Source: Gammaproteobacteria bacterium (GTDB lineage: Bacteria; Pseudomonadota; Gammaproteobacteria; Xanthomonadales; Wenzhouxiangellaceae). Taken from it: a DNA stretch of 57,064 nt. Numbering within the stretch: position 1 is the first letter of the stretch; every line of letters begins with the position of its first letter. Position numbers and translations under genes: made by a program. Below are positions 14,449 to 24,818 of the stretch, in pieces. The stretch is taken from assembly GCA_021772955.1 (NCBI GenBank), contig JAJFKZ010000026.1, forward strand, positions 1-57,064, read 5' to 3'. Below the pieces are notes generated by a model that saw only the letters and a program-made list of their open reading frames with translations, did not search any database and was not told where the DNA came from.

Positions 14449-16254
14449 TTACTGACCAAGTGCGTTTTGAATGGCATCATCCAGTCCGGTTGTCCAGCTT
14501 TCGATCCAACGATCATTGGCGTCTCTGAAGGCCCCGATATAGGTTGTTTTGTCGAAGAAATCACCTAACGGTGCGACGCCACCATCGATCAGCACGGAAG
14601 ACTGCGAAGGAAAAACAGTGCCGGGCACAAATTGGGGATTAACATCGATCAGATTATTCTGTGCATTCCACCAATCCGAAATCAGGAACGGATCACTGGC
14701 AGTATCTTCAAATGCGCCCTGACCACAGCTACCGATGGCAGAGCCGGCCACGGTCAGGTTACCGCTAAGCGCAGATGGTATCCCACCATTATTGAAGGTT
14801 TCATTATCATCGATGTTGACGCAGCCCTCACCGGAGCCGGAGATAAACATGTTCCAGGCATTGAAGCTAGTACCGGTGCGCAAGCGCCATCCCTCACCTT
14901 CCGGCGCGGTGCCGATCACGGTGATATTGGCCAGGCGCGGATGGGAACGTGGTACAGCACTATTGTTGTTGGGGTTGTTGTCCATTTCAAAGCCATTGTC
15001 ATTGGACAGATCGCCCTGCACAATCAGGCCATACTGGATCGAACCCTGCCAGCCGAGATCGGTGTCCAGACTGTCATCACGGATGTTGCTCATGACAATA
15101 TTGCGCAGATTCACGGTACCGCCGAAAATCTCGATGCCGTCATCAAAACCGGAGTCCGTCTGCACGAATTCGATCACCGTTCCAGCGCCGACGCCAGCCA
15201 GTGACAGTGCATTCAGCTCTTCATCCTGAATAATGGGGTTGCCGGCGAAGCGGATTTGCAGGTATTTGATCAAGCCGCTGCTGTCGTCTACATTGTCTCC
15301 ACCGAACAAGCTACCTGGCAGACCTTCAAATGGCGCATCGCAAGCCGGCAGAGGGGCTGAGCAAGCGTTGGTTGGGGCATTGCCGAATATCGCCAAACCA
15401 CCGACATCACCTGGTGCTGGAGTCGTGCCCGTACCAATATCGGTAGCTGATGTCAATACGATTGGCGCAGTCGGCGTGCCTGCTGCGAAGATTTTTGAGC
15501 CGCGCTCAATAATCAGCGCATCAGAGCCGGAGCTACCGACGATATAGGTGCCTGGCTCGATGGTGACCGTCGCAGCACCGGTGTTATTGGCGCCGCCGAT
15601 GAAAGTCGGGCCATTCATCACCCAGACAATGTTGTTGCTCAGCGTGATGTCCACGTCTGTGTATCTGCCACTGATCTCACAGAATCTGCCATCAAAATCA
15701 GCAGTGGCAAAGGCTGGACACTGCGCAGGCGCTGGCTCCTGGTAGACGCACTGATCACTACCAACGGCTACTATATTACCGAGGCTTGAGCTGCCGCGAT
15801 CCATGTTCACTGTGCCTGAGCCAATATCAGGACCACCATTGTTGTTCCACTGCCAGTTCAAATCCATACTGTCGCATGAATTGAATTTTAGTGTGAACGT
15901 AGCAAAATCTTGAATACGTGTGTCGAAATTACCGTCTGGGCCACCGAAGAAGTTTCCACCACTGGTCAATGCCATCGACACAGCGAATGTATCTTCACCG
16001 GGAACAACACCGCTAAAAGTACCGCCAAGCCAGATCTGGTTGCCGTCATTATCAAAAGTGAATCCGGTTATGAACAGCGCTCCTCGATCGCGCGGACCGG
16101 TTTTAATAAACTGGATGTTCAGGCCGCGCCTGGCGTCAGCATTACTGACTTCGACCCACTGCCCATTAAACTGCTGATTGACCCAAAACGCCGATGCGTT
16201 CATGGCTATCAGCGTAGTAAGCACTATGGCTGACTGAATGACTCTATGCAACAT
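14449..16254 (-). CDS. Secreted protein with parallel beta-helix-like repeats, unknown function
   Basis: Signal peptide (MLHRVIQSAIVLTTLIAMNASAF); Gly/Asn/Ile-rich repetitive C-terminal two-thirds (GGTVNLRNIVMSNIRDDSLD, NGFEMDNNPNNN, RLANITVIGTAPEGEGWRLRTGT). Preceded by a Pho-box array. Confidence 0.8.
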   Translation of the reverse strand: MLHRVIQSAIVLTTLIAMNASAFWVNQQFNGQWVEVSNADARRGLNIQFIKTGPRDRGALFITGFTFDNDGNQIWLGGTFSGVVPGEDTFAVSMALTSGGNFFGGPDGNFDTRIQDFATFTLKFNSCDSMDLNWQWNNNGGPDIGSGTVNMDRGSSSLGNIVAVGSDQCVYQEPAPAQCPAFATADFDGRFCEISGRYTDVDITLSNNIVWVMNGPTFIGGANNTGAATVTIEPGTYIVGSSGSDALIIERGSKIFAAGTPTAPIVLTSATDIGTGTTPAPGDVGGLAIFGNAPTNACSAPLPACDAPFEGLPGSLFGGDNVDDSSGLIKYLQIRFAGNPIIQDEELNALSLAGVGAGTVIEFVQTDSGFDDGIEIFGGTVNLRNIVMSNIRDDSLDTDLGWQGSIQYGLIVQGDLSNDNGFEMDNNPNNNSAVPRSHPRLANITVIGTAPEGEGWRLRTGTSFNAWNMFISGSGEGCVNIDDNETFNNGGIPSALSGNLTVAGSAIGSCGQGAFEDTASDPFLISDWWNAQNNLIDVNPQFVPGTVFPSQSSVLIDGGVAPLGDFFDKTTYIGAFRDANDRWIESWTTGLDDAIQNALGQ

Positions 16255-16294
16255 GATTTACTCCGATGCTATGATGGAAAAACGTACACGACGT

Positions 16295-16350
16295 ATCATC
16301 ACATCACCGCGTTACACATTAATGACAGTCAAATGACAGGTAGATGACAG
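16295..16350 (-). promoter_or_regulatory. Extended Pho-box array and candidate -10 driving the secreted protein gene
   Basis: On the - strand: CTGTCAT CTAC CTGTCAT TTGA CTGTCAT TAAT GTGTAAC (half-sites at 16344-16350, 16333-16339, 16322-16328, 16311-16317; exact 11-bp period), then 10 nt to GATGAT (16295-16300). Confidence 0.85.
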
Positions 16351-16391
16351 CCGCATATTCCGTCGTCAACAGCGCAGTATGTGGTTGTGGC

Positions 16392-23906: not shown

Positions 23907-24754
23907 GACTGGGCTCCCGATGACAGCGGAGTGTGCGCTGCAGGGAAGGCATTGGGCAGCTCAAAATAACCTTGACGAATCTGCTTGCGCAGCGCATCAA
24001 ACAGCTCTGCAATCTGCTTGCGCCCGTCGGCATCCTCAACCAGTTGCCAACGCCAATTGTCGGCTGTGAATTGCTGATTGGGATCGGCCATGCCGAACTG
24101 GCCATCGCGAGTCTGGAAATACATGGCAATGCTGCCCAGCTTGGCCACATCCACCAGTAACGATTTGCCGTTCAGATTGATGGTCTGCGAGTAGATCGCG
24201 TTCTCGCGCGACAGCCGCAACTCGTCTTCCACAAAAGCCCAGAGTCGATTGATACTGCGCTGCGGATTGGCGACGCCAGCCTCGAGTTCGGTTTTGACTT
24301 GCGCCAGCGCTTGCAGCCGCTCTTCGCGCTTGAACGGGAACTGCTGGCTGACATGATCGCGCAGCTGGTTGGTAACCTGGATTGCCACAGCCTGCAAAGT
24401 CTGTGCGTCTGCACCAGCATTTTCAGCCCGCTCACGCAGCTCTGCAAGTTCGGTTTCCAATTGCTTGATGCGCGTTTGTTCGCGATCCTGGGCGGCCTCC
24501 AGCTCGGTTTTCTGCGCCGACAGATAAGCCATGCGTCCCTTGTGTTCATCGCGTACGATATCGAGATCTGTCTGCAGATCCTCAACCTCGCCGCGCAGGC
24601 TGATCAAACGCTGGGCCAGATCATCCGCCGGCGCACTGGCAGAGCTGCCTTGCGCATGACCATGACCGGGAACCAGCATGAAGGCAATTAGAACGAGCAG
24701 GCACCCTAAGGAGGGACGCGCTGACAAAGCATACAGATTTTGTAAAGCAAGCAT
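23903..24754 (-). CDS. DUF3450-like periplasmic coiled-coil protein
   Basis: Signal peptide, coiled coil, W-rich C-terminal half (IAMYFQTRDGQFGMADPNQQFTADNWRWQLV); first gene of the TonB2-type run. Confidence 0.8.
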   Translation of the reverse strand: MLALQNLYALSARPSLGCLLVLIAFMLVPGHGHAQGSSASAPADDLAQRLISLRGEVEDLQTDLDIVRDEHKGRMAYLSAQKTELEAAQDREQTRIKQLETELAELRERAENAGADAQTLQAVAIQVTNQLRDHVSQQFPFKREERLQALAQVKTELEAGVANPQRSINRLWAFVEDELRLSRENAIYSQTINLNGKSLLVDVAKLGSIAMYFQTRDGQFGMADPNQQFTADNWRWQLVEDADGRKQIAELFDALRKQIRQGYFELPNAFPAAHTPLSSGAQS

Positions 24755-24784
24755 GAAGACAACACAGCTGAAGATCTGCAGCCC

Positions 24785-24818
24785 ATGCTAATCGGCCATT
24801 ATGACAAAGCTGTTACAG
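24785..24818 (-). promoter_or_regulatory. Candidate degenerate Pho box and -10 upstream of the DUF3450-TonB run
   Basis: - strand: CTGTAAC AGCT TTGTCAT (24801-24818), 10 nt, TAGCAT (24785-24790); same spacing as the pstC site. Confidence 0.5.

What the first reader, a model, noticed from the sequence alone, without database searches (positions are those of the whole stretch)
14449..24818. Apparent PhoB-controlled TonB2-type outer-membrane uptake module with dedicated receptor and secreted partner
Seen: DUF3450-like, TtpC-like, ExbB, ExbD, TonB, TPR and TonB-dependent receptor genes are all on the - strand with 4-10 bp overlaps or gaps of 1-23 bp, followed by a secreted beta-helix-like gene. 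Pho-box-like sites precede both the run and the secreted gene, and phoU-pstBAC lies immediately upstream. Established: TtpC/ExbB2/ExbD2/TonB2 plus a TPR protein form TonB2 energy systems in Vibrio. Inference: this one is dedicated to high-affinity uptake of phosphate or an organophosphate/polyphosphate under starvation, with the secreted protein as a capture or processing partner.
Basis: partly seen in the sequence, partly recalled or inferred. Interest (0 to 1): 0.85.

Follow-up and report, generated by a model that had tools for sequence, protein, structure and literature searches.

The report
Phosphate-starvation outer-membrane import module
Next to its high-affinity phosphate transporter this bacterium carries a complete powered gate for its outer membrane, with its own motor, receptor and a secreted partner protein related to Caulobacter's phosphate-starvation protein ElpS, and switch sites conserved in many relatives indicate that it is turned on when phosphate runs out.

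Summary
Window 14449-24818 holds DUF3450-TtpC-ExbB-ExbD-TonB-TPR-TBDR-secreted gene, all on the - strand directly behind pstCAB-phoU. Strong Pho boxes precede pstC (21.5 bits) and the secreted gene (three 11-bp repeats, up to 20.6 bits). The box before DUF3450 is weak on its own (10.3 bits), but across relatives Pho boxes mark exactly two genes: DUF3450 (33 of 42 upstream regions) and the secreted gene (56 of 95). TBDR and internal genes score 0-5%, and Fur boxes are absent (0 of 95; 2 of 42). The receptor/secreted pair was adjacent in nearly every locus that could show it across Pseudomonadota. The secreted protein is a homologue of Caulobacter ElpS and the receptor of its neighbour CC0171; ElpS and the Flavobacterium versions are published as induced by phosphate starvation. 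So the phosphate link is well supported, and the pair is known. The apparently new part is a complete Pho-linked TonB2-like motor, from a TtpC lineage distinct from the genome's other TonB2 cluster; a comparable motor of the other lineage stands beside the pair elsewhere, suggesting two recruitments. The substrate is undetermined; organic phosphorus is favoured over Pi or a metal. New variant of a known kind.

The parts
14449..16254 (-). secreted ElpS-family protein (601 aa; signal peptide without lipobox, N-terminal beta-barrel-like domain, beta-strand-rich right-handed beta-helix-like body)
   Evidence: 35% identity over 373 aa to the elpS homologue of Caulobacter vibrioides T5M6 (E 5e-61); predicted structure pLDDT 86
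16311..16350 (-). triple Pho box before the ElpS-family gene (CTGTCATCTAC CTGTCATTTGA CTGTCATTAAT)
   Evidence: 20.6/17.3/17.3 bits; among the few mismatch-free sites of the whole genome; homologous promoters carry boxes in 56 of 95 loci
16392..19595 (-). TonB-dependent receptor with PEGA and CarboxypepD_reg N-terminal domains, TonB-box-like EYVVV, plug and barrel
   Evidence: 30% identity over 837 aa to the CC0171 homologue (E 2.5e-105)
19586..20803 (-). TPR protein with signal peptide, like TtpD2
   Evidence: TPR hits
20827..21471 (-). TonB
   Evidence: TonB_C PF03544 68.8 bits
21471..21881 (-). ExbD
   Evidence: PF02472 103.5 bits
21883..22482 (-). ExbB
   Evidence: PF01618 98.1 bits
22479..23906 (-). 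TtpC-like protein (long periplasmic coiled coil plus MotA/ExbB domain)
   Evidence: PF01618 99.6 bits at residues 344-460; tree
23903..24754 (-). DUF3450 periplasmic coiled-coil protein, like TtpB2
   Evidence: PF11932 104.6 bits
24801..24818 (-). weak Pho box before the DUF3450 gene (CTGTAACAGCTTTGTCAT)
   Evidence: 10.3 bits; 0 of 100 local shuffles as high; 33 of 42 homologous promoters carry a box
24827..30349 (-). pstC-pstA-pstB-phoU directly upstream
   Evidence: phoU by PF01895 and TIGR02135; pstCAB by sequence and order
30380..30397 (-). Pho box before pstC
   Evidence: 21.5 bits, best site of the window
6234..9693 (+). phoB, phoR and a pstS-like gene
   Evidence: Response_reg/Trans_reg_C, HisKA/HATPase_c; PBP_like_2 and TIGR02136
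14391..14412 (-). intrinsic terminator after the ElpS-family gene
   Evidence: 9 G-C pairs plus T-run

Best explanation
A PhoB-controlled outer-membrane acquisition module. Under phosphate starvation phospho-PhoB turns on pstCAB-phoU, the energiser/receptor operon and the secreted gene (inferred from conserved boxes; induction published for homologues). The ElpS-family beta-helix protein leaves the cell or sits on its surface and captures or prepares a phosphorus-containing molecule, or assists a phosphatase that does (inferred). The adjacent TonB-dependent receptor imports the product through the outer membrane, powered by its own DUF3450-TtpC-ExbB-ExbD-TonB-TPR complex rather than the cell's second TonB2 cluster (inferred from gene order and co-regulation). 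Periplasmic enzymes such as PhoA then free Pi for PstSCAB. The most likely cargo is an organic or polymeric phosphorus compound; the cargo is the least certain step.
For: Operon structure and domains. Strong Pho boxes before pstC and the secreted gene. Comparative Pho boxes: 33 of 42 before DUF3450 and 56 of 95 before the secreted gene, 0-5% before TBDR, TPR, TonB, ExbD, ExbB and TtpC; Fur boxes 0 of 95 and 2 of 42. Module conserved through some 11 families of the order; pair adjacent in nearly every locus able to show it. pst/phoBR/ppk genes within 20 kb in 8 of 40 order loci and 8 of 22 other gammaproteobacterial loci. ElpS/CC0171 homology with the published order elpS-cc0171-gspC-gspD. ElpS produced under phosphate starvation and raising phosphatase activity when overproduced (PMC2996285). 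Flavobacterium TBDT/lipoprotein pairs Fjoh_0545/0546 (phoBR operon) and Fjoh_3856/3857 induced only by Pi depletion (PMC8115612). The second TonB2 cluster has no Pho box (3.2 bits). PhoA present.
Against: No expression data for this organism. The DUF3450 box in this window is weak, so the run may depend on read-through from pst. No transport has been shown for any homologue; deleting elpS did not change phosphatase activity and cc0171 was reported constitutive in Caulobacter (PMC2996285). The C. vibrioides T5M6 elpS promoter has no significant box with this matrix (5.7 bits, p 0.14). No recurrent phosphatase, nuclease or phytase neighbour points to a substrate.
Confidence: 0.7

Rival explanations
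1. The module imports inorganic phosphate itself, replacing an OprP/PhoE-type phosphate porin in very dilute habitats.
For: Directly behind pstCAB in the window and beside pst or pstS genes in several relatives; neighbours show no hydrolase.
Against: Pi is small enough for porins, and TonB-powered receptors usually carry large or scarce ligands (general knowledge); a separate, large secreted partner fits a bulky ligand better; in Flavobacterium low-Pi receptors sit with phosphodiesterases and phytase (PMC8115612).
Confidence: 0.15
2. The receptor imports a metal or cofactor needed by the starvation phosphatases, and the ElpS-family protein is a metal-binding or phosphatase-activating exoprotein.
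For: Invariant acidic clusters DDGIE and DDSxD in the beta-helix; ElpS raises phosphatase activity without being a phosphatase (PMC2996285).
Against: No PhoX or PhoD was found in this genome (genome 88% complete); no Fur box.
Confidence: 0.12
3. Glycan use: the beta-helix protein degrades or binds a polysaccharide and the receptor imports fragments, with Pho control serving to mine phosphate-rich polymers or to remodel the surface.
For: The strand-rich body resembles polysaccharide epimerases and lyases only weakly; Flavobacterium FI/FII were modelled on polygalacturonase (PMC8115612).
Against: Fold matches are poor (TM about 0.2, best E 1.5e-3); Pho boxes and pst linkage rather than sugar genes.
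Confidence: 0.08
4. An iron/Fur TonB2 system that merely sits next to pst genes.
For: Vibrio TonB2/TtpB2/TtpD2 systems serve siderophores (PMC6957404).
Against: Fur-like sites absent before the promoters in relatives, Pho boxes present; pair homologous to low-Pi-induced proteins.
Confidence: 0.03

Closest known systems
ElpS (CC0170) and CC0171 of Caulobacter crescentus (PMC2996285)
   Same: Secreted protein plus adjacent TonB-dependent receptor, homologous over their main bodies; induction by phosphate starvation published for ElpS.
   Different: Caulobacter has a lipoprotein and sits next to type II secretion genes, with no TonB energiser; here the protein has a plain signal peptide and an extra N-terminal domain, and the receptor an extra N-terminal region, attached to a full energiser and to pst genes.
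Flavobacterium johnsoniae PUSIII/PUSIV (TBDT plus FI/FII lipoprotein, PMC8115612)
   Same: TBDT with an ElpS-related lipoprotein, induced only by Pi depletion; PUSIV in the phoBR operon.
   Different: Bacteroidota; no attached TtpC/ExbB/ExbD/TonB set mentioned in the passages read; no direct sequence comparison was made here.
Vibrio TonB2/TonB3 systems with TtpC, TtpB2 (DUF3450) and TtpD2 (TPR) (PMC6957404)
   Same: Same set of component types.
   Different: Iron-regulated and siderophore-serving there; here Pho-boxed and fused to a receptor/secreted-protein pair. Vibrio sequences were not compared directly.
SusCD-like Pus systems of Flavobacterium (PMC8115612)
   Same: Low-Pi-induced TonB-dependent import with a surface partner (idea).
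   Different: No SusD domain here; the partner is an ElpS-type beta-helix protein.

Membership tests
TonB2-type energy system | Contiguous DUF3450, TtpC, ExbB, ExbD, TonB and TPR genes | tested here: met
   compared with the component list in PMC6957404
TonB2-type energy system | TtpC in the same lineage as known TonB2 TtpC | tested here: inconclusive
   Window TtpC falls in a lineage far from the genome's second TonB2 cluster; long branches; no Vibrio sequence in the tree
TonB2-type energy system | Powers a TonB-dependent receptor | not testable with these tools
   needs mutants
ElpS/CC0171 pair | Secreted protein homologous to ElpS | tested here: met
   35% over 373 aa, E 5e-61 to C. vibrioides T5M6; CB15 CC0170 itself not held
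ElpS/CC0171 pair | Adjacent receptor homologous to CC0171 | tested here: met
   30% over 837 aa, E 2.5e-105; adjacency in nearly all loci able to show it
ElpS/CC0171 pair | Lipoprotein anchor | tested here: not met
   Signal peptide MLHRVIQSAIVLTTLIAMNASA without lipobox Cys; so it is filed as a homologous variant, not as an ElpS orthologue
ElpS/CC0171 pair | Type II secretion available | tested here: met
   GspC-type gene on another contig, E 3e-23; not adjacent as in Caulobacter
Pho regulon member | Pho boxes in promoters, conserved | tested here: met
   the single site before DUF3450 in the window is weak
Pho regulon member | PhoB-dependent induction at low phosphate | not testable with these tools
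   needs expression data
Fur/iron TonB system | Fur box before the promoters | tested here: not met
   0 of 95 and 2 of 42; window p 0.78 and 0.94
SusCD/Pus system | SusD-like lipoprotein next to the receptor | tested here: not met
   No Pfam or NCBIfam hit for the partner

The most novel reading that the evidence does not exclude
A self-contained, starvation-induced, energised outer-membrane importer for intact phosphorus-containing molecules, with a private TonB motor recruited at least twice in evolution to the same receptor/secreted pair, so that gammaproteobacteria take up large phosphorus compounds before hydrolysis.
Probability: 0.35. Interest if true: 0.75.

Novelty: new variant of a known kind. 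Interest (0 to 1): 0.55.

Why it matters
Phosphate limits growth in many waters and soils, yet how Gram-negative bacteria bring scarce phosphorus compounds through the outer membrane beyond passive porins is poorly known. A conserved, Pho-boxed module with its own motor turns the ElpS mystery, a strongly induced exoprotein of unknown job, into a testable transport hypothesis and would add a non-iron duty to TonB2-like systems.

Tried and rejected
Iron/Fur reading: rejected on box statistics. Substrate from neighbours: recurrent neighbours are type II secretion, TonB2 or unrelated genes, with no phosphatase, nuclease or phytase family standing out (neighbours judged by eye, not by a family scan). 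Genome-wide Pho regulon by pattern: only window sites match without mismatch, and a reversed control pattern finds half as many, so no further members can be named. Solved relatives: none for the secreted protein and only weak ones for the receptor. Fold search: no strong match. PhoD and PhoX absent, PhoA present in an 88% complete genome. Literature: no paper in the held library joins TtpC with phosphate starvation. An early null drawn from random stretches of the same loci was dropped because the loci contain the sites themselves; per-region shuffles were used instead.

Full report
What is there. On the - strand of the window, pstC-pstA-pstB-phoU (30349 to 24827) is followed after 72 bp by DUF3450, TtpC, ExbB, ExbD, TonB, TPR and a 1067-aa TonB-dependent receptor, with overlaps or gaps of at most 23 bp, and after 137 bp by a 601-aa secreted protein that ends at a strong terminator. 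Converging from the other side are phoB, phoR, a pstS-like gene, ppk, ppx and epmA.

Regulation. A PhoB matrix built from nine E. coli-type sites (recalled) ranks the pstC box first (21.5 bits) and the three overlapping sites before the secreted gene next (20.6, 17.3, 17.3); the best score in 20 simulated windows was 18.7. The site before DUF3450 scores 10.3, which a window this size gives about five times by chance; by itself it would be weak evidence. Relatives decide the matter: with 100 dinucleotide shuffles of each 330-bp upstream region as control, a significant Pho box precedes DUF3450 in 33 of 42 loci and the secreted gene in 56 of 95, but TBDR in 2 of 90 and the other internal genes in 0-5%. 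Fur-like sites reach significance in 0 of 95 and 2 of 42. phoB promoters, a positive control, score 9 of 14. In several relatives the secreted gene is divergent from DUF3450 and shares one control region. The genome's second TonB2 cluster has no Pho box (3.2 bits).

Conservation. In the order, loci from some 11 families carry the energiser-receptor-secreted set (loci); a few carry only the pair. Across Pseudomonadota 57 of 399 sampled genomes encode the secreted protein. In 54 of the 55 loci fetched for it the receptor is adjacent or nearly so; the exception, L129, holds a second copy with a receptor fragment about 7 kb away. In the order set, L084, L085 and the second copy L097 lack a recognised receptor, and a few receptors lie at the far side of the energiser rather than next to the secreted gene. 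pst, phoBR, pstS or ppk/ppx genes lie within the 20-kb stretches in 8 of 40 order loci and 8 of 22 other gammaproteobacterial loci; about 1% would be expected from gene density (estimate).

Identity of the pair. [quoted passage not shown] The scan of named genomes found this arrangement in Caulobacter vibrioides T5M6 (L193: lipoprotein with LAGC lipobox, receptor, then GspC- and GspD-like genes). The window's secreted protein is 35% identical to it over 373 aa (E 5e-61) and the receptor 30% over 837 aa (E 2.5e-105). The CB15 sequence itself was not available, so the name rests on gene order, lipobox and species. Published facts on the homologues: ElpS is produced under phosphate starvation and released by a type II secretion-dependent step; its overproduction raises phosphatase activity, its deletion does not lower it, and it is not a phosphatase itself. 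Caulobacter's PhoB regulon includes its type II secretion system and several TonB-dependent receptors (PMC11208175). In F. johnsoniae, ElpS-related lipoproteins paired with receptors are induced only by Pi depletion, one pair in the phoBR operon, one protein being the most abundant exoprotein (PMC8115612).

The motor. A tree of 46 TtpC proteins splits into two well-supported, very distant groups. One holds the window and its order plus one other gammaproteobacterium (L128). The other holds the genome's own second TonB2 cluster and the copies that stand beside the pair in another gammaproteobacterial family (f14), whose DUF3450 promoters also carry Pho boxes (10 of 10 in L128-149). The simplest reading is two separate recruitments of a TonB motor to the same pair. 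Long branches and the missing Vibrio sequences leave this as inference.

The secreted protein. The model (pLDDT 86) shows an N-terminal beta-barrel-like domain (residues 30-152) and a long strand-rich body with right-handed beta-helix character; Foldseek hits are weak (best E 1.5e-3, TM about 0.2: AlgG epimerase, polysaccharide lyases for the body; nitrophorin and avidin-like barrels for the front domain). Conserved DDGIE and DDSxD motifs suggest a metal- or substrate-binding face (inference). It has a plain signal peptide, and a type II secretion gene exists elsewhere in the genome.

Shown, published and inferred. Shown here by sequence: genes, order, boxes, conservation, homology. Published for homologues: phosphate-starvation induction of ElpS and the Flavobacterium proteins. 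Inferred: PhoB control in this organism, partnership of protein and receptor, import, cargo, dedication of the motor. Caveats: the Pho matrix is from memory; loci within one family are not independent; the genome is 88% complete.

Verdict. The pair is known and half-characterised; the Pho-linked private TonB motor, apparently acquired twice, is the new part, and the cargo is the open question.

Noticed in passing
L312:4723-10753 (own genome, contig C113): A second TonB2-like cluster, DUF3450-TtpC-ExbB-ExbD-TonB-TonB-TPR-like, with two TonB genes and no Pho box; no receptor was recognised beside it.
   Followed up: partly
window 14449-16254, residues 30-152: The secreted protein has an N-terminal beta-barrel-like domain absent from the alpha-proteobacterial and Rheinheimera-type homologues; resemblance to lipocalin/avidin barrels is weak.
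   Followed up: partly
P0019, P0060, P0065, P0068: Rheinheimera-, Ferrimonas-, Parashewanella- and Glaciecola-type homologues are lipoproteins with two tandem copies of the ElpS-like domain; L145 appears to have three.
   Followed up: no
window 8566-9693: The pstS-like gene is split from pstCAB and sits between phoR and ppk.
   Followed up: no
window 30505-32467: A DUF47 (PhoU_div) and Pit-type phosphate transporter pair runs divergently from pstC, giving two phosphate uptake routes back to back.
   Followed up: no
L128, L129 (one genome): Two copies of the ElpS-family gene in one genome, only one with the complete energiser module.
   Followed up: no
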